NCBI GenBank assembly: GCA_910589415.1
Contig: OU342630.1
Span: forward strand, 17,145,867-17,209,866
Direction of reading: 5' to 3'
Source: Malachius bipustulatus
Lineage: Eukaryota; Arthropoda; Insecta; Coleoptera; Melyridae
DNA length: 64,000 bases
Shown: one piece after another, positions 6,507 to 39,785 of the stretch
Position numbering within the stretch: the first letter of the stretch is position 1
How the letters are laid out: each line of letters starts with the position of its first letter
Notes under the pieces: generated by a model
What the model saw: only the letters and a program-made list of their open reading frames with translations
Databases searched by the model: none
What the model was told of the DNA's origin: nothing
Translations under genes and position numbers: made by a program

Positions 6507-6529
6507 ATATATATATATATATATATATA

Positions 6530-7146
6530 TACAGGGTGTTGATTTTCAAAGCGGGCCATAGGGGATTAGCATTGCGAAAGTGATTTTTGAGGATTCCTGC
6601 TCGCCGTTTAAACTGACAGAAATGGTTTTGGTATCAAAATGAAGCTGAAATTATTGCGCATAACGCTTGACATCAGAAATTAATTTAATTTCACGTTGTT
6701 TTCTAAAATTCTTCAGTAAAAATTCAACTAATTGTTAATGTTTAATCACAAAATAGCATGCCTTGCCTAAAAAATAATGACGTTTCTACGTTTTGACAAT
6801 CCAATAATAAAACTTTTTTTAAAAATAGAACCAGACTTTATTATTACCTACTGACTTATAAATTTTTATTATTGGATTGTCAAAACGTAGAAACGTCATT
6901 ATTGTTTAGACAAGGTATGCTATTTTGTGATTAAACATTAACAATTAGTTGAATTTTTACTGAAGAATTTTAGAAAACAACGTGAAATTAAATTAATTTC
7001 TGATGTCAAGCGTTATGCGCAATAATTTCAGCTTCATTTTGATACCAAAACCATTTCTGTCAGTTTAAACGGCGAGCAGGAATCCTCAAAAACCACTTTC
7101 GCAATGCTAATCCCCTATGGCCCGCTTTGAAAATCAACACCCTGTA
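6530..7146. repeat. Near-perfect palindrome, 617 bp
   Basis: Left end TACAGGGTGTTGATTTTC, right end the exact inverse at 7129-7146. The arms are about 285 bp with very few differences, meeting around 6838 across a short AT-rich loop. No coding potential. High arm identity suggests recent formation or gene conversion. Confidence 0.85.
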
Positions 7147-7279
7147 TATATATAAATATGAAAGTTTTATTAGAGCCGTGATTATAAATCATGAAAATAT
7201 AATTTTCGGGCATTTAAAGCTCATTAATAAAGTGCTTTCAATGGCAGACAGCACACGCAACCATCTAGAGCCCCTCGAA

Positions 7280-7326
7280 GCTGCAGACGGACCGTTTCGG
7301 TCTTTTTATGACCTCATTAGTACAGC
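7280..7326 (-). ncRNA. Hammerhead ribozyme copy with a core mutation
   Basis: The exact inverse copy of the right-arm ribozyme in the left arm, read on the minus strand. All stems are identical, but the core reads CTAATGA (complement of 7314-7320) instead of CTGATGA. That replaces the invariant G5 with A, which is known to abolish hammerhead catalysis. It should be inactive. Confidence 0.8.
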
Positions 7327-7806
7327 ATATCGAGATGGAATCCAGAGGCTACGATGCTGTCCGCCATCAAAAGCTAGGCCTTTGTATCCACTCAGTTCCA
7401 CGGAACCAAGTGACTTACAACGCCTTTCGCCATCTAACAATGGAGGCAAGAACTACCAGCAATGTGTGCCAGCTTGCGACCATCAGAGACGGCGGCCCGG
7501 TGCAGTTTTATATGCTTTTAGGCTTCACCTCTCCTCGGCCAGTGCTGACCACTGCCGGAATGGAATGGCATCTTCCGGCAGTGGTCAGCACTGGCCGAGG
7601 AGAGGTGAAGCCTAAAAGCATATAAAACTGCACCGGGCCGCCGTCTCTGATGGTCGCAAGCTGGCACACATTGCTGGTAGTTCTTGCCTCCATTGTTAGA
7701 TGGCGAAAGGCGTTGTAAGTCACTTGGTTCCGTGGAACTGAGTGGATACAAAGGCCTAGCTTTTGATGGCGGACAGCATCGTAGCCTCTGGATTCCATCT
7801 CGATAT

Positions 7807-7853
7807 GCTGTACTGATGAGGTCATAAAAAGACCGAAACGGTCCGTCTGCAGC
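7807..7853 (+). ncRNA. Hammerhead ribozyme with an intact core
   Basis: All conserved parts are present in order. The stem I 5' strand GCTGTA (7807-7812) is followed by the core CTGATGA (7813-7819). Stem II is GGTC paired with GACC, with loop ATAAAAA (7820-7834). Then comes GAAA (7835-7838), whose last A pairs with T7846 at the base of stem III. Stem III continues as CG and G against C and CG around a three-base loop (7839-7845). The cleavage dinucleotide TC is at 7846-7847, preceded by G (a GUC site). The stem I 3' strand TGCAGC (7848-7853) gives six pairs including one G-U. Predicted cleavage is after 7847. Every catalytic-core position of the hammerhead consensus is satisfied. Short stem III resembles the type I hammerheads of animal retroelements. 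Confidence 0.85.
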
Positions 7854-7925
7854 TTCGAGGGGCTCTAGATGGTTGCGTGTGCTGTCTGCCATTGAAAGCA
7901 CTTTATATATATATATATTTATACA

Positions 7926-25060: not shown

Positions 25061-25187
25061 TTGTATAATTGAAGAATGTAATATTGGGTGTCATTATAAA
25101 ATGGATTAGAATTTAATTTAAAATAAGATGTTACATTATCAGACCACCCTTGTGTTAAAACTCGTCAAAATGGCGTGTTGTTATCGC

Positions 25188-27925
25188 CGGACCATTCAGG
25201 ACGGACCATTCAGGACGGACCATTCAGGAGGTGCTTCTTGGCCATCTGGAAGCATTGTTTCAGACTATTGATAGCATTCTGATGATGGGTGATTTCAACA
25301 TTCCTCAGTATAATGTTGTGTCAGACGGATTGAGTTCACTTTTAGATAATTTTTGCAGTTATTTCAATTTTAGGCAAATTAATAGTATTCACAACTGTGA
25401 TGATAGAATTTTGGATTTGGTTTTTACGAACAATGCACAGGCTTTTGTCTCGCATGATTCAGATTCGTTGGTGCGAGAGGACCCGTATCATCCGGCCTTG
25501 TCAATTTTGGTAGAATTAAGATGCTCTTTACCAAGAAAATTCACCTGGAATCCGAACTCTGATAGGTTCAATTTTAGGAAGGCCAATTTTGTTGCTTTAT
25601 ACAATGAAATGCTGCATATTGATTGGTCTCTATTACGCAATATGTCTGATGTTAACCAGACATGTGACAGATTTTATGATATATTATATACTGTTATTGG
25701 CAGACATGTGCCTCTCTTACAGATAAAAAAACGTAATTATCCACCATGGTTCAACAGGGAAATTATAGCCAATTTACGCACTAAGCATTTGGCTCTTAAA
25801 CACTGGAGAAGACATAAACTACCACAATTTATGGACACATACAAAGAGTTGCGCGCTCTGGTGAAAAGGCAGATAAGTATTGCATATAAATTATATTTAG
25901 GTCAAGTTCAGGAGGCAATAGTATCTGATCCCAAGAAGCTATTTTCATTTATTAACAGCAAAAGAGGTGTTACTAGGATACCTGGTAGGATGCATTATGG
26001 TGATGTTTCTCTTGATAACTCGCAGGATATTGTCAATACTTTCGCCATATTTTTCAAATCCACTTTCCTGGTATCTTCTCAAAGAGACAGAGTTAAAAAT
26101 TCTTTTGGCGAGGTTAATCTGCCATCTTTTAGCATAGCATCTATTACAAGGGAAGACATACGAAGTGCCTGTAAAAAGATCAAGCCCAATATGACATCAG
26201 GTCATGATCAGATTCCTGGTTTCTTCGTTAGGGATTGTGTAGAGGTTTTGATTGAACCATTGCTTATTGTTTTCAATTTATGTTTGGAAAACAACACATT
26301 TCCGGATCATTGGAAGATCGCGAAAGTTTACCCTGTGTTTAAGAGTGGCGATAAACAAAATGTTCCTGATTACAGGCCTGTATCACTTTTGTCAGTATTT
26401 TCAAAGGTGTTCGAGGTGATTCTGCAAAGATTTATCTTTAACCATGTTAGATGCTATATCTCCCAGCACCAGCATGGATTCTTTGAAGGCAGGTCCACCT
26501 TGACAAATTTAACGCAATTTACTCAATCCGCATTAGAGATTGTAGACGGCAGGGGCCAATTAGATACGATATATACGGATTTTGCAAAAGCATTCGATAG
26601 GATTGATCATAACATTATTTTAAAGAAGTTAGAGGCATTCGGGTTTTGTAGTGATCTTGTGGTCTTCTTTGAATCATATCTTATTGACAGACAACTCTAT
26701 GTAACTTATAATGGTTATAGCTCACCGCGTTACTTCCACTTCCACTACTTCCACTTCCGGTGTTCCCCAAGGATCTAACCTTGGCCCTCTGCTGTTTCTT
26801 ATTTTTATTAACGATCTCCAGGACGTAATCTCAAGTGATATATTGATGTTTGCGGACGATGTTAAGATTTTCCGCGCCGTGGGTTCCCTTGAGGATGCCG
26901 AGATGCTCCAGAAAGACCTCGGAGTTTAAACAGCTGGTGTAATAGCAACAATTTATCACTTAATTTCGACAAGTGTAAGGTAATCACTTATACGCGCATA
27001 AAGAATCCTATTGTCTACTCTTATGGTATTGGAGAAAACATTATTGAGCGGAACTTGTCCACCAAAGATCTTGGTGTATATTTTGACAGTGAATTATCTT
27101 TCGCACAACACATAGAAGCGACTTCAAACTCTTCTCTCAGAATGTTGGGCTTTGTATTAAGAAACACTAGATCATTTGATAGTATTCATTGCATGATTAC
27201 TTTATATAATACATTTGTTAGAACTAGGCTGGAATACGCTATGCTGATCTGGTTTCCATTTTATAATAGACAGATTACATTGTTGGAATCGATTCAACGG
27301 AGATTTTTGAAGGCACTTTGGCTGAGGAAGTTTGGCGAGTATCCTCATCAGGGGTTCCCTCATCTGACATTGTTGCAGACATTTAATTTTAAAGCACTAC
27401 ATGAAAGACACAGATGCAGCTGCTTAATATTTCTATTTAAATTAATTCATGGCCAGGTTGATTCAAATTGGTTGATCGGTGAGCTCAAATTTTGCATTCC
27501 ACGCACTGGTATTCGTACTCCACAGGCATTCGTTTTATCGACACCCAGGACGAATCTCCTGGTCAGGTCGCCCATTTTCAGAATGTGTTCATGGTTCAAT
27601 GAGATCAGTGACGAGTGCGACATTTTCCACATGTCAATAAGCGCTTTCAAACAAGTGTTGGATTCATAGCTGACAGGGTTGAAGGGGGTTTGTAGTTGGG
27701 GGGGACCAATCCTTGTGTTGTTCTTCATTTTTTTCTGTATTTTTTTTTTCTTCTCATATTATGTTATAAGGCAGAGTATTGTTGAAACTTATAAATTTTG
27801 ATGTTTATAATATCATTATAATTGTTCTCTAGTGATATAAGATATAATACATAATACTGTTGTTGTATTTTCAAATGTTATTTTGTCCTGTAAATGGATT
27901 TTTTCAATCTGTTGGGCAATAAAGT

Positions 27926-29343: not shown

Positions 29344-32099
29344 TTATTCTCGACGATTATTCACTGCCCTCAGGAGGCAGAGGTGAGGCGTGATGCATTC
29401 ATCTGAGAAGTTGTCCCTAACAAGTCCAGGAGCGCAGACGCACCCATCCTTGCAGTCGCATTCCCTGATTCCAAGCATATCGTAGCACGTGGGAGGACAG
29501 CCTATAACACCACATGTCTGGAAGACCTCGTTAGGTGGACATTCTTTCGGGACTTCTCCTACAAGTATCAGATGAAAAATTAAAGCAATATTGACAAAGT
29601 GAAGTCTGAAAATTTGCTATTAGATAATAAAAAAACGTCCATTTATTACGTTTTTATTTTTATTTCTTTTATACTTTTTTGGTAACTTCAAAGTGCTAGA
29701 ACGACACCATCGAATAATCTAACGGGCCAGAACGTATCTGGCGTGTCCCTACCTTACTTAACTTTTCATGTTGTATCATACTATATAATGTGCTTTAAAT
29801 TTTTATACAGGATGATGAAAGATCTGATCATTTTCATCATCCTGTCCAGTATTAATAAATTTAAGCCACATATCTAGTACATAAGATACCACGCACTCCT
29901 TTCAAAATGAAAAATTGCAATGTTAACTTGTTTAAAATTCACAAACTACCTACTCAATTTACCCTACTTCTGCAAAAACCATTCTAATTGCATTTTCTCA
30001 AGAAGTATGAAGATACGATAATATACAGGGTGTCCTATCGAAAAAAAAATAGATACTGTCATCATTACTTCAAAACCTTATTACACCCCAATACAATACA
30101 AATTTCTTTATTGTACTTGAATTACAACAGTCATTGCTTAGTACAACAGCGTTATTACAGAAATAATAAAAACAAAAACAAAGACAAACAAGTAAAAATT
30201 AAAAACGCACAGTCAACATAACACCGGCAACAGTGAGAGTCGAGACGCGCAGAGACACTAAAGACATCAGGTCTCAATTATTTAGGTATGGTTCCAACTC
30301 TATGATAAGGATGGATCAAGGCTGAGGGTTTTAGATATTTTAATATCAGACTGCAGGTAGGGATGGGAGGTTGAAGGACGGTATATCAGAGGTAGTGTAT
30401 GGTTCCAATTCCGTGAGGTGTTTCCGGAGATACGCCCTATACGCTGAGAGCCCAACAGTTGCAGGATCTATTTTGAAATGGTTCAGGTATTTGATAGATG
30501 CGTACGTGAATGTTATTTCTGAAGACGACAGATGGTGTGCAGGAGGTTTGAACAAATTGAATATGGTACTGTAGTGATGGGTGAATCGGAAAGGTAAAAG
30601 TTTATCCTGATTTTTGTGGATCAGTTTGAGTAGAGAAAAGACGTACAAAGCAGGCACGGTAAGAAGTCCAAGCCGCCTGAAATGACCTCTGCATGACTGC
30701 TGCACTGACAAGCCTGCCAGGATCCTAATCGCTCGCTTTTGAAGAAGAGAAACCCTTCGGAGAGATCTCTCAGATCCACCCCAGACGGCCCGCTCATATA
30801 GTTAATGTGGCTGATGAAATGCTCATAATAAGCATAGAGAAGAACCTCAGGAGACACCGTGTGCTGATGGCGTCTGAGAAGGAAGCAGACACTAGCAAGG
30901 CGACGGCACAAATGATCTGTGTGAGCCGACCAGTTTAGGTTCTGGTCGATGTGGAAGCCCAAAAACTCCACGACAACCTTCGGCTCGATCAAGGCACCGT
31001 CGGTGGGTACGGAGGGTAACGGAGGAAGACGTGATCGGCTAGAGTGAAAATCAATCATCTCAGTTTTGTATAAGTTGAGTTTTAGTTTATTATTGACCCT
31101 GAGCCATAAACTTGCTCTTTTCAACGGAAGTTGAACGGCATCATCTATCAGACTAGGAAGGTCGCCTGGTTTTATCCTAATAAGAATTGTTGTATCATCA
31201 GCATAGTTACCACAGAGTGAATTAGGGGAGGTAATTTTGGGGCCCAGGTCGTTAATGAAGATAAGGAAAAGAAGTGGACCCCCCATAGTGAAAATGGATA
31301 CTGAACCGTCTCTGTCTGTGAAAATTAAAAAATGCCTAGGGTAGAAATTATCTTGGGGGTTTTGCATGATTTCAACACATTCGAATTTATACAGACACCG
31401 GCTACTAGCGTGATGTTAGCGTAACCAAATTATATACCCGACTAAAAGTTGCAAGTGCGCATTAACTAGCTTAAACAAGCTACCTACTTTCAAAACTAGG
31501 GTAATGTATTCCAAATAACAAATTTGCAGATTGCTGCTTGCCACTCTGACCGGGAGGGGTGAAAATTGTAACTAATTAATAAAAACTAATATTGCATGTT
31601 GAAGTGGTAGCCTGTATGTGTAAGGAGTGACATGATTGGAGTACCATGAACTAAACAGTACTAAAAGTAGAGATTAGAATCATGCTTACACCGTACGAAT
31701 ACTGCGAGTTTTTATTACACAGGAAAAATGTACGAAAAGGTGTACGATTATATTATGTTGAATACTGAACGTTTAATAAATAATAATTGTTAGGCTCTAT
31801 ATCAATGAGTTACGACCATATATGTAGGTATACATACTTTTAATAGTTAATATTGTTTCAAACAATCCAATTGAAACAATTTACCATAGGAGCTATTAAT
31901 TGCAATTCGCCTATGTATACAGACTCAGTACTCACACGGTATATATATATATATATATATATTAGGTCAAAACCAAAGAAGATTTTATATCATCAATAAT
32001 ATTTAATATAGCAGTTGCGTTTAACAAAAACTTACCAGTAGAAATGCCAACGCAAATGAAGGAGAAATACAGAACTACAACAGCAATCATAAATGACAT
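29344..32099 (-). CDS. Secreted TIL-domain (ten-cysteine) protease-inhibitor-like protein, two exons
   Basis: Exon 1 (32099-32036) encodes a 21-residue signal peptide (MSFMIAVVVLYFS...) and ends in a GTAAG donor. Exon 2 (29558-29344) follows a TTGTAG acceptor and gives the rest, joined in phase 1; total 92 residues. Exon 2 has ten cysteines at about 28, 37, 42, 46, 55, 57, 61, 63, 76 and 82, with ECPPNEVF at the start and a CVC pair, the trypsin-inhibitor-like (TIL) pattern. TIL proteins are secreted and many inhibit serine proteases. Cysteines five and six are separated by a single residue, whereas in inhibitors such as the honeybee chymotrypsin inhibitor the reactive loop has three, so inhibition of a protease is uncertain. 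A TATA box and poly(A) signal frame the gene. The intron (29559-32035) contains a LINE fragment in the same orientation. Too short and split to show as one long frame. Confidence 0.9.
30086..31372 (-). pseudogene. LINE fragment in the TIL intron
   Basis: Minus-strand frames 31367-30621 and 30711-30346 give reverse transcriptase from GPLLFLIFINDL and YADDTTIL to the C-terminal domain (VVVEFLGFHID, the LNW...H thumb region), with a frameshift around 30700. The 3' UTR ends with AATAAA (minus strand, near 30100) and TTGTA repeats at about 30086. It is 5'-truncated at ~31372. Jockey-like by motif. A separate family from 25188-27968 and 17393-19640. Confidence 0.8.
31373..32035. other. Rest of the TIL intron
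   Basis: AT-rich intron DNA with a TA microsatellite at 31939-31962. No exon-like frame or repeat partner was seen. Confidence 0.4.
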
Positions 32100-34887: not shown

Positions 34888-37650
34888 TACAGGGTGTTAA
34901 CTACCAACTAGAACAAAATAAAGGAGGTGACTCTACGACTTATTCTAAGAAAAAAAGTTCCTATTAACATGGGTCCGCAAATGCACCGTTTTCGAGATAT
35001 AGGTTAAAAAAAAAAAAAATTTCTTACTTTTTTTACGATATTTCAAGAACCGTTAGAGCTACAGGCTCCAGCTTTTGTACAGATTTTTACATTAATAATA
35101 GCTACTTTTAAGACTCCGAACTAATGTTCTAAGATATGCCAGTGGTGGAGATTTTAGGGTTGTGTGAGGGTTTCACCCCCTTATAACTTTTACGGTACTA
35201 GAAAAACCAATGTTTTTTACACAAAAAAGTACTCCTGGGCAAAAGCTGAAGAAGCCACCGTTCTCGAGAAAAAAATACATTTTATGATCAAAAACGTACA
35301 AAATTCAACATGAACAGAAACAGAAATGTATTTATTTTATTTTATTTATTTTATTATCTAGACGAAGTTGAAAACAATGTGGCTACAAGCACAAGAAAAA
35401 TAGGTGCAAATTTGAATTTGTGCCATGTTACAGTAGGTATGGAAAATTTTGAAAATAAATTTTTTTGGTCATGTTGAATTCTGTATTTTTTTGATCATAA
35501 AATGCCTTTTTTTCTCGAGAACGGTGGCTTCTACAGCTTTTGACCAGGAGTACTTTCTTTGTGTAAAAATCATTGGCGCTTTGAAATTTGCTCTCAAAAT
35601 GACAATTTTTCCAGTGCCGTAAAAGTTAGGGGGGTGAAACCCTTACTCAACCCTAAAATCTCCACCACTGGCATATCTTAGAACATTATCAATATATTGG
35701 AACAGAATATTGGCATATTAGAACAGAAATCGAATTTACTAGCCTTTCCTATAATGAGGTTGGTGATTTGATGATGTCTCTAAAGAAGAGTCCCGCTAAA
35801 GATTATTGTGGTTGCAACGCCAAGATTCTCATTAGTATCCTGGAATATGTACTGGTGCCACTAACAAACTTGTTCAATATGTGTATTGAAAAAGGTGTTT
35901 TTGAAGGTTTCGATTGTTCTTCCTTTGCACAAAAAAGGGTCGATCTCAGATCCATCTAACTACAGGCCGATTTCTATTATACCCGTGGTAGATAAGATAT
36001 TTGAAAAGGCATTGGAAAATAAAATTGTATTTTTTTTTTTAATCTAATGAATTGTTTTCTCAGTCACAATATGGATTCCGAAAGTCTCGTTCGACGGTCT
36101 GAGCAATGATCAGCCTCATTTCGGCAATATCCTGATGGATTTAATGAAGGTGAATACGTGGGAGCATTATTTTTCAATCTTTCAAAGGCCTTTGACTGTG
36201 TGAACGTTGACATGCTGTTGGAAAAGTTAAACTTTTATGGATTCAAAGGTAGCACACTTGCACTTATGAGATCTTATCCGTCGGGGAGGAAGCAGGCTGT
36301 CTGCTACGGTGGCACTAGATCATATTTAGTGAACAACAAGACGGGTGTTCTACAGGGATCCATTTTGGGTCCCATCCTGTTTTTGATATACGTTAATGAC
36401 TTACCGGGTTTTGTATCTGAAGCCTTACCCATTCTATTTGCCGATGACACGACTCTGGTGACGAGAGATACTCAGCTGAATGGCCTGTCTCAAAAAATTT
36501 TAAAATTGGAACGGAAAGTTTCAGAATGGTTTACTTCCAACCGATTGTCCTTGAATGCTAAAAGACGGTGAATTCTTGCTTTTCTCCAAGAGATCTAACA
36601 CGGTCAGGGTTTTCTTCTGACGTTCGCTTTCTTATTCGTGTCAGATTGGACTCTGAACTAACTTGGGCTAGTCACACTGATTCCCTAGCGCGTTATATAT
36701 CTCCTTATATTTTTTCCCTTAGAAACATAATGCCGCTGGTAAGCTTGGGCGTGGCAAAATCCGTGTACTTTGCAACAATTCATAGTAGATTGTCATATGC
36801 AATATTGATATGCGGGGTCACTGTGCCACTATGGATAGAATCTTTGCTTTGCAGAGGAGGGCGCAGCGAGAGCTTTGGACCAGATTGGATACCGTGACGA
36901 CTGCAGGGATAGTTTTGCTAAACTGGGTATTTTGACGGTTCCATCCTTATATGCATATCACTGTTTAATTTATATTAAAGAACATATTTCCAATTATATG
37001 ATTCACTGTGATGATGTCAGCGCTCGCCACACGCGGAATGGCAACAATATATTTCTGGATTTCAACAGAGTAAATAAGGCTCGAATGGGCACTAACTATT
37101 ACGGACCGACGATGTACAACAGACTGCCTATTACTATTAGAAATCTCCCTTTGAAAGATTTTAAATTGAAGATAAGGGACTTTTTCGGGACTCATGCCTT
37201 TTATAGTCTTGATGAAGTTTTTAAAAGTATTTCCCACGCTCAGTGATCCTGGTCGTCTCCAGTTTCTTTTCTAAGTGTTTGTTATTTTATGAATTTGAAT
37301 TTAATGCATTGCATTGTTTTTTGCTCATTTTGTTTGTATGTGTACATTTGTATTTGTATTTTATTTTTGACCTGTTCCATAGCAGTTTACTGCTTTAGGG
37401 AATTGATGATGGCAAATAAATAAATAAATAAATCAATAAAATTAGTTCGGAGCCTTAAAAGTAGCTATTATTAATGTAATAATCTGTACAAAAACTGAAG
37501 TCGGCAGCTCTAACGGTTCTTGACATATCGCAAAAAAGTAAGAAAAAAAACATTTTTTTGAACACCCTGTATCTCGAAAACGGTGCATTTGCGGACCCAT
37601 TTTTAATAGGAACTTTTTTTCTTAGATAAAGTCGTAGAATAACCTCCTAT
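34888..37650. mobile_element. Foldback TACAGGGTGTTAACTACC split by a LINE
   Basis: Left arm from 34888 to about 35330; inverse arm 35460-35690 resumes at 37441 and fades at 37650 before reaching a terminal end. The arms share ACCGTTCTCGAGA, CACCACTGGCATATC and the GCACCGTTTTCGAGAT block. The LINE at ~35695-37440 is inserted in the right arm. Centre near 35390. Confidence 0.7.
35695..37440 (+). pseudogene. 5'-truncated non-LTR retrotransposon with motif A mutated
   Basis: Plus-strand pieces: 35768-35959 (start of the reverse transcriptase, KSPAKDYCG), 36158-36571 (FFNLSKAFDCVN, GVLQGSILGPILFLIYVND, FADDTTLV), 36568-36897 and 36875-37246 (C-terminal domain). In motif A the usual DLSKAFD reads NLSKAFD, so the first catalytic Asp is lost. 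Several frameshifts. The 3' end is an AAAT repeat (37418-37436). Jockey-like. Confidence 0.85.
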
Positions 37651-39114: not shown

Positions 39115-39785
39115 AAATGCACATGCACTGCAGGGAAATTCCTATGACGCTCTGGGAGCGGTGCATGAGCGGAGATGTCGATTTACGTTGGCCTTGAATC
39201 TCTGTAGGTTGTATACTTCGGGAAACACGCCCTTTGGAATGCTATTCCAAAGTGATGCGGTTCTATACATAAAAAAAGTCTGAAATAGGGTGGTACGAGG
39301 TGTAACGAGCTGAACCTGATACGGATGAGCGTCTGCGGCTCGACGTGTATTTCTACCCGGTCTTGTTCTTAATGGGATCAAGCGGGCCACGTCTTTTGAA
39401 CACTTTCCATAAAAATATCTGCAAAACAGACTCAGGTCAGCTACTCTTCTTCGATGTTCGAGAGTGTCTAAATTTTTTGTCAAATCTGGGTCCCCAATCA
39501 AGTGGATGGCTCTTTTCTGAATAGAGTCGAATAATCTCAGCGTATGTTTAGGAGCTGAGCTCCAAACATGTGAGCAGTACTCCAAGGATGGTCGGATTTG
39601 AGCCTTGTATAATTAGAGGAGAAGCTGTTGTGGTGTATAAATTTTTTTCGTACGGAAGAGTGTTCCAAGTTTTTGAGAAGCACTCTTCGCCAGACGTGCA
39701 ACATGATCATGCCAAGACATGTTCGCTCCGAGGCTCACTCCACGTAAACGAAGAGATGACGCTGGAGTAAGAGAGTGTTTGAAAA
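39115..39785 (-). pseudogene. LINE family R-a, copy 2 (3' end)
   Basis: Minus-strand frame 39585-39142 is open for 147 codons and encodes the LINE C-terminal domain (MEYCSHVWSS, RLFDSIQKRA, FFMYRTASLWNSIPKGVFP). It matches 17393-17700 and 49415-50100. Upstream parts are missing; only the last ~670 bp inserted or survived. Confidence 0.8.

What the first reader, a model, noticed from the sequence alone, without database searches (positions are those of the whole stretch)
7229..7904. Palindromic element with an intact hammerhead ribozyme
A full hammerhead (stem I GCTGTA/TGCAGC, core CTGATGA, stem II GGTC/GACC, GAAA, short stem III, GTC cleavage site) is readable at 7807-7853. It lies in a 332-bp arm of a 676-bp palindrome that is far more GC-rich than its surroundings. 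Retrozymes usually carry hammerheads in direct repeats and Penelope-like elements in pseudo-LTRs; an inverted dimer with outward-facing ribozymes is not a form I know as described. It could be a foldback copy of a retrozyme-like RNA.
Basis: partly seen in the sequence, partly recalled or inferred. Interest (0 to 1): 0.9.

Follow-up and report, generated by a model that had tools for sequence, protein, structure and literature searches.

The report
Hammerhead retrozyme inserted as back-to-back arrays
The palindrome is a young copy of a small mobile RNA element with a self-cutting ribozyme that enters the genome as outward-facing copies or arrays, apparently copied from both sides of a break in a TA repeat by a Penelope-type enzyme, which would show in DNA how such RNAs get back into chromosomes.

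Summary
The palindrome and an intact type I hammerhead (7807-7853) are real. The element is larger than reported: 7154-7906, a minus and a plus copy of a 441-nt unit meeting at 7558-7560, between TA repeats; the left ribozyme is mutated (CTAATGA).

The core occurs 283 times in this genome, often in tandem 441-bp arrays: a metazoan-type non-LTR retrozyme. Of 33 loci examined, 18 are two-sided, all with minus copies left and plus copies right. All 51 outer (3') ends fall in an 81-nt AU-rich stretch, 45 beside TA repeats; inner ends lie anywhere. In 17 of 18, one outer end is 'long', the other 'short'. Arm lengths correlate; in two older arrays the same variants recur in every lap of both arms.

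Penelope-like elements here share the layout: tandem units, 23 minus/plus pairs of like score, and, in the loci read, a hammerhead about 85 nt before the end, TA target and a tail on one side. A purified Penelope protein is published to cut and extend both strands.

Best reading: Penelope-type enzymes prime on both strands of a TA break and copy one retrozyme RNA, probably a circle, for several laps. RNA and activity are untested.

The parts
7154..7906 (.). whole retrozyme insertion (two-sided, less than one lap per side)
   Evidence: unit k-mer mapping
7154..7560 (-). left arm, unit 407 down to 1 on the minus strand; outer end of the 'long' class
   Evidence: 1 variant, 243G>A
7558..7906 (+). 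right arm, unit 427-441 then 1-334; outer end of the 'short' class
   Evidence: 0 variants
7558..7560 (.). inner junction of the two arms, 3-nt overlap
7807..7853 (+). intact type I hammerhead ribozyme; predicted cleavage after 7847 (unit 275)
7280..7326 (-). mirror hammerhead, core changed to CTAATGA (7318), predicted inactive
7154..7227 (-). AU-rich 3' region of the unit (positions 334-407), in which outer ends fall; kept only on the left arm
7145..7153 (.). left target flank, short TA repeat
7905..7923 (.). right target flank, TA repeat

Best explanation
The feature is one insertion of a non-autonomous metazoan-type retrozyme (441-nt unit, type I hammerhead). Proposed cycle: tandem copies are transcribed; the hammerheads cut the RNA into 441-nt monomers; a host ligase closes them into circles (inferred from published retrozymes, not shown here). 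A Penelope-like protein (RT plus GIY-YIG endonuclease) cuts both strands of a TA tract. Both 3' ends read ...TATATA because the tract is its own complement, and both anneal at AU-rich sites about 55-135 nt downstream of the hammerhead cut. One end primes at a distal ('long', unit 402-411) and the other at a proximal ('short', 331-378) site of what was probably the same RNA circle. Each RT runs 0.1 to 14 laps round it, the two cDNAs are joined at a random point, and a minus-left/plus-right array results. The window copy is a minimal case with less than one lap per side. Shown from sequence: unit, arrays, orientation rule, end positions, TA target, long/short rule, shared variants, correlated arms, same layout in Penelope-like elements. 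Inferred: circular template, a Penelope-like protein as helper, one molecule for both arms, ribozyme activity.
For: Orientation: 18 of 18 two-sided loci are -/+. Outer ends: 51 of 51 lie in unit 331-411 (81 of 441 nt); inner ends 10 of 51 there, as for a uniform spread (KS p 0.70). TA repeats beside 32 of 36 outer ends of two-sided and 13 of 15 of one-sided loci (with L038 moved to the two-sided set) against 0.6% of random 34-mers of the window. Long/short rule: 17 of 18 (permutation p 0.0003). One template: in L029 eight variants occur in every lap that covers them in both arms (3 of 3 to 5 of 5), in L034 five likewise. Arm lengths correlate (Spearman 0.76, p 0.0002) and the two inner ends lie nearer each other on the unit than permuted pairs (65 against 111 nt, p 0.0004). 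Helper: three Penelope-like ORFs tested all carry RVT_1 and GIY-YIG. Among 150 scored GIY-YIG hits (of 775 candidates) neighbours within 10 kb are 47 same-strand, 23 -/+ (scores within 1.5 bits) and 2 +/- (scores 2.7 and 4.5 bits apart). L056 and L059 have a minimal hammerhead about 85 nt before an outer end at TA repeats and a tail on one side only. In the L059 family 7 pairs of ends are one short and one tailed, all -/+. L059 sits in the host repeat that flanks 22 of 33 retrozyme loci. Published: a purified Penelope protein cuts and extends both strands and starts RT at two internal sites that define the tail (PMC11167929, main text).
Against: No RNA, circle or cleavage data. The isolated hammerhead fold (-16.5 kcal/mol) is not the predicted minimum (-20.4). 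No sequence is shared between the unit and the nine Penelope-like loci compared beyond 14-24 nt weak matches (best E 0.32), so the helper family is not identified. Of three Penelope-like loci with both arms read, L057 does not end at TA. In the published assay RT start was not homologous to the cut DNA and hammerhead mutants did not affect insertion. Junction overlap is not above chance (8 of 18 with at least 1 nt, chance 44%), and 8 of 18 junctions carry 3-24 extra nt. L012 breaks the long/short rule. 15 of 33 loci are one-sided. One L059-family locus may have two short ends, and 13 of 21 tailed ends have no listed partner. Most young arrays have no variants with which to test for a single template. 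Linear multimers are not excluded.
Confidence: 0.66

Rival explanations
1. Fold-back (self-priming): one cDNA is made from one side by target-primed reverse transcription, its 3' end folds back within the self-complementary unit and is copied, giving the second arm; the free end is then joined to the other flank through TA microhomology.
For: Inner ends of the two arms are closer than chance (65 against 111 nt); the same variants in both arms; RNA strongly self-paired (z -8.4 for the 334-nt arm; circular fold of the unit -168 against a mean of -121 kcal/mol for 30 mononucleotide shuffles). Self-priming has been proposed for inverted Penelope elements (PMC3846280, passages read).
Against: Does not predict that one outer end is long and the other short (17 of 18). 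If the primed arm were always the long-ended one it should be the longer; it is so in only 9 of 16. Variants confined to one arm (L011, L012, L013, L015/L037, L029, L034, window) are not mirrored in the other, though later mutation could account for these.
Confidence: 0.18
2. Two-sided priming as in the best explanation, but on linear multimeric transcripts rather than a circle, or on two different RNA molecules.
For: The published Penelope model uses a multi-copy RNA, and unprocessed RNA was the main substrate in vitro (PMC11167929); Penelope-like arrays in this genome are tandem too.
Against: Runs of up to 14 laps (L037) would need multimers with every hammerhead uncut; the same variants in every lap of both arms in L029 and L034; inner ends correlate modulo the unit.
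Confidence: 0.12
3. DNA-level inverted duplication or hairpin amplification of an ordinary tandem satellite.
For: Arrays look like satellite DNA, and palindromes are prone to such events (general knowledge).
Against: At 12 of 33 loci both flanks, and at 22 at least one, are recognisable parts of one host repeat, of which 197 uninterrupted matches exist; outer ends are confined while inner ends are free; orientation 18 of 18.
Confidence: 0.02
4. Assembly artefact or two independent neighbouring insertions.
For: Palindromes are a known long-read artefact (recalled); TA tracts are repeated targets.
Against: 18 loci with different junctions, no TA tract between the arms, one locus later split by a 4,028-bp insertion (L038/L039), older loci with shared variants.
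Confidence: 0.02

Closest known systems
Metazoan non-LTR retrozymes (Cervera and de la Pena 2020, PMC7229834)
   Same: Type I hammerhead, short tandem repeats without LTR, PBS or PPT, GC below 50%, self-paired RNA, Penelope-like elements in the same genome
   Different: 441 nt against the published RNAs of about 170-400 nt; arrays two-sided and outward-facing with defined 3' ends in TA tracts. That paper's main text holds no 'inverted', 'inverse' or 'opposite'; the 2020 review says the repeats show no motif that would reveal the helper (PMC7761336, its section 7)
Endonuclease-containing Penelope-like elements (Adineta vaga, PMC3846280; Anolis PAc, PMC11167929; D. virilis)
   Same: Head-to-head inverted copies, tandem units, optional tail on one inverted end, type I hammerhead, AT-rich targets, both-strand cutting and extension in vitro
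   Different: The retrozyme unit carries no RT or endonuclease ORF (longest open stretch 146 codons, minus strand), so it must borrow the enzyme; its ribozyme has a 3-bp stem III and an internal loop in stem I; up to 14 laps per side
LINE-1 twin priming (recalled; no paper read for it)
   Same: Second target strand primes on the same RNA and gives an inverted 5' part, the same -/+ topology
   Different: L1 inversions split one RNA into two parts; here both arms copy the same unit, often for several laps
Plant LTR retrozymes (PMC4918200, search listing only; features from PMC7761336)
   Same: Hammerhead and RNA circles
   Different: Type III hammerheads in direct LTRs; 4-bp target duplications

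Membership tests
metazoan non-LTR retrozyme | type I hammerhead with complete core | tested here: met
   read directly and 283 copies; Rfam HH9 25.3 bits, below its gathering score of 52
metazoan non-LTR retrozyme | tandem repeats of about 150-450 bp without protein-coding frame | tested here: met
   441-bp period; six-frame check of the unit: longest open stretch 48 codons on + and 146 on -, too short for RT or endonuclease
metazoan non-LTR retrozyme | GC below 50% | tested here: met
   0.46 for the unit
metazoan non-LTR retrozyme | dispersed, mobile | tested here: met
   33 loci on ten contigs; 197 uninterrupted copies of the host repeat
metazoan non-LTR retrozyme | self-cleavage and circular RNA in vivo | not testable with these tools
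   no RNA data held
mobilised by a Penelope-like element | helper with RT and GIY-YIG present in the genome | tested here: met
mobilised by a Penelope-like element | same target, head-to-head layout and one-tail rule as the helper | tested here: met
   exceptions L057 (not at TA) and L012 (two short ends)
mobilised by a Penelope-like element | shared sequence with a specific helper family | tested here: inconclusive
   only 14-24 nt weak matches in nine loci compared
Penelope-like element itself | RT/GIY-YIG ORF between pLTRs | tested here: not met
   unit of 441 nt without such a frame
foldback/MITE DNA transposon | fixed terminal inverted repeats and fixed centre | tested here: not met
   variable ends, variable centre, tandem laps

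The most novel reading that the evidence does not exclude
Two reverse transcriptases, one primed from each strand of a TA break, chase each other round one and the same RNA circle for up to a dozen laps and both stop where the ring breaks; the genome thus keeps records of rolling-circle reverse transcription of a ribozyme-made RNA circle, and the same process would build the inverted tandem arrays of Penelope-like elements.
Probability: 0.42. Interest if true: 0.88.

Novelty: new variant of a known kind. Interest (0 to 1): 0.78.

Why it matters
Which enzyme returns animal retrozymes to DNA, and how, is left open in the two papers read on them (PMC7229834, PMC7761336). This family offers a footprint that makes it testable: target, priming sites, two-sided layout, lap counts and shared variants. 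It also suggests an explanation for inverted Penelope copies with a tail on one side.

Tried and rejected
Rfam gathering search: no hit in 64 kb; the relaxed microRNA hits at the palindrome centre are taken as artefacts. A pattern for one exact outer end found only two places, which showed that ends vary. BLAST of the unit against nine fetched Penelope-like loci for a shared 3' region: nothing beyond short weak matches. A relaxed Rfam search of L056-L059 gave no hammerhead hit up to E 1; their hammerheads were read by pattern and rest on that. Junction microhomology as the joining rule: not above chance. The first count had 34 loci and one outer end outside the AU-rich stretch; L038 and L039 proved to be one element split by a 4,028-bp insertion, so the final count is 33 loci. 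The long/short limit (402) was set after seeing the ends; no end lies at 379-401. Ends were taken from exact 14-mer runs and are uncertain by a few nt next to TA; the right end of L012 (361 by k-mers) was set to 377 by eye because one substitution cut the run. Naming the species was not pursued: COX1 reads openly in the invertebrate mitochondrial code beside frames that look like ND2 and COX2, an insect-like order (recalled). Sampling limit: 26 loci are all those in the 100 places listed of 283; 7 more were added; the rest of the genome was not examined.

Full report
What is there. The palindrome at 7227-7906 is real: 334-nt arms, one mismatch, 12 nt between. A complete type I hammerhead lies on the + strand at 7807-7853 with predicted cleavage after 7847. 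The mirror copy has CTAATGA in place of CTGATGA (7318). Rfam reports it only below its gathering score, as Hammerhead_HH9, 25.3 and 22.4 bits.

The window copy in its genome. The window lies in a 544-Mb, 52-contig assembly. The core occurs 283 times at up to 3 mismatches, control 0. The arm is part of a 441-nt unit that stands in head-to-tail arrays. Mapping the unit back shows that the window element is 7154-7906: a minus arm from unit 407 to 1 and a plus arm from 427 through 441 to 334, overlapping by 3 nt at the centre and flanked by TA repeats.

Architecture. I examined 33 loci (counted; mapped): all 26 in the 100 places listed of 283, plus 7. 18 are two-sided: all 18 have minus copies on the left and plus copies on the right, so the 3' ends point outward. 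15 are one-sided. Every one of the 51 outer 3' ends lies in unit 331-411, an AU-rich stretch (GC 0.24 for 334-411) that starts about 55 nt after the hammerhead cut; 45 of the 51 are beside TA repeats (both ends of L030 and of L038/L039 and the ends of L021 and L068 are not). Inner ends are spread over the unit (10 of 51 in that stretch, KS p 0.70). 22 of the 33 loci have at least one flank, and 12 both, in one host repeat, CACCTGCCCACGA(TA)n...TTTCTCCAAAATC, of which 197 uninterrupted matches exist. The window copy is not among the 22.

Two rules that constrain mechanism. First, in 17 of 18 two-sided loci one outer end is long (402-411) and the other short (331-378); L012 has two short ends; permutation p 0.0003. 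Second, the arms come from one template sequence: in L029 the variants at 41, 71, 76, 99, 153, 174, 345 and 367 are in every lap that covers them, on both sides, and L034 shows five such variants. Of these, 153, 174 and 345 are shared with other older loci, 71 and 76 of L029 with L065, 71 and 286 of L034 with L036; 41, 99 and 367 were seen in L029 only. Arms run from 0.1 to 14 laps and their lengths correlate (Spearman 0.76), and the inner ends of the two arms are closer than permuted (65 against 111 nt, p 0.0004). Variants confined to one arm are not mirrored in the other. Junctions: 8 of 18 overlap by 1-4 nt, 2 blunt, 8 with 3-24 extra nt, some of which resemble pieces of the unit by eye; overlap is not above chance.

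The likely helper. GIY-YIG hits in this genome (150 scored of 775 candidates): three ORFs tested carry RVT_1 and GIY-YIG. Neighbouring hits within 10 kb: 47 on the same strand, 23 -/+, 2 +/-; the two +/- pairs join hits 2.7 and 4.5 bits apart, the 23 are within 1.5 bits. L056 and L059 are head-to-head, have outer ends at TA repeats, and carry minimal hammerheads, read by pattern, about 85 nt before the short end; Rfam does not report these. One side of each bears a tail of about 36 nt; in L059 it aligns to the internal unit, and that of L056 is the continuation of the unit in ten related loci, L045-L054, two of which (L049, L050) run into TA just after it. L057 does not end at TA. End patterns of the L059 family: 10 short and 21 tailed ends; 7 pairs of one short and one tailed end, all -/+; one locus (C3:38.75 Mb) with two short and one tailed end, which may be a short/short pair; 1 short and 13 tailed ends without a listed partner (pairing done by eye from the coordinates). 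L059 lies in the same host repeat as the 22 retrozyme loci.

Literature seen. PMC7229834: parts 1-3 of 6 of the text and the Discussion; it names Penelope-like elements as a strong candidate for mobilising animal retrozymes. PMC7761336: abstract, its sections 6 and 7, and passages; it says no motif tells which helper is used. PMC11167929: passages and the whole main-text section; the Anolis Penelope protein cuts and extends both strands, RT starts at two internal sites that correspond to the tail, and hammerhead mutants do not affect insertion. PMC3846280: passages; inverted head-to-head Penelope copies with a tail, explained there by self-priming. PMC8490949: 12 of 20 passages; nothing on inverted arrays in them. 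PMC4918200: search listing. Searches: 'retrozyme' with 'hammerhead' and 'inverted' (7 papers); 'hammerhead ribozyme', 'Penelope-like', 'circRNA', 'metazoan', three of four (20 listed); 'Penelope', 'retroelement', 'inverted orientation', 'GIY-YIG', three of four (20 listed); 'hammerhead ribozyme', 'satellite DNA', 'insect', 'inverted'; 'retrozyme', 'Penelope', 'target-primed'; two or more of 'retrozyme', 'head-to-head', 'palindrom', 'twin priming', 'both strands' (755 papers, 12 listed, none of them on retrozymes); 'Penelope' with 'twin priming'; 'Penelope-like', 'hammerhead', 'inverted', 'tail'; two or more of 'Penelope-like', 'head-to-head', 'pLTR' (12 listed). No title or abstract start listed describes two-sided retrozyme arrays; most of these papers were not opened, and subscription papers and preprints are not held, so this is not proof of absence.

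Reading. A TA tract is its own complement, so a break offers two identical 3' ends; both can prime on the AU-rich part of the same RNA. Two enzymes on one RNA cannot start at one place, which would give the long/short rule. A ring explains many like laps, shared variants in both arms, correlated lap counts and, if both run off at the same break in the ring, correlated inner ends. This last chain is inference. Fold-back synthesis explains the inner-end correlation and the shared variants but not the long/short rule.

Noticed in passing
6517-6816 / 6860-7159: A second near-perfect palindrome (300-nt arms, 98%, 43-nt centre) with ends ACAGGGTG/CACCCTGT beside TA repeats, directly left of the retrozyme; the same repeat end also adjoins retrozyme L032. 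Looks like a TA-target MITE or another two-sided element.
   Followed up: no
25159-27669, 30346-31415, 36110-36571, 39142-39612: Fragments that look like non-LTR reverse transcriptase ORFs (by eye from the translations; no family search made).
   Followed up: no
G000:C11:3382-82839: A contig carrying one large Penelope-like butterfly: 6 minus then 18 plus GIY-YIG hits, spaced about 3,327 bp.
   Followed up: partly
L062, L063 (G000:C22): The same mini-butterfly of about 104 nt occurs twice on one contig with near-identical left and different right flanks beyond the TA repeat.
   Followed up: partly
L038/L039 (G000:C7:2573701-2577730): A retrozyme arm split by a 4,028-bp insertion with terminal inverted repeats CCATACAGCACAA and GAT on both sides of the site.
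   Followed up: partly
L018, L019, L020 (G000:C36, C52): Two mitochondrial contigs (30,080 and 15,716 bp) each with COX1; the larger holds a second partial copy.
   Followed up: no
L013, near 4310: A 9-nt insertion in one lap only, repeating neighbouring unit sequence, as from slippage during reverse transcription.
   Followed up: no
441-nt unit, minus strand: One minus-strand frame has a single stop per lap (146 open codons; 441 is a multiple of 3); no sign that it is coding.
   Followed up: no
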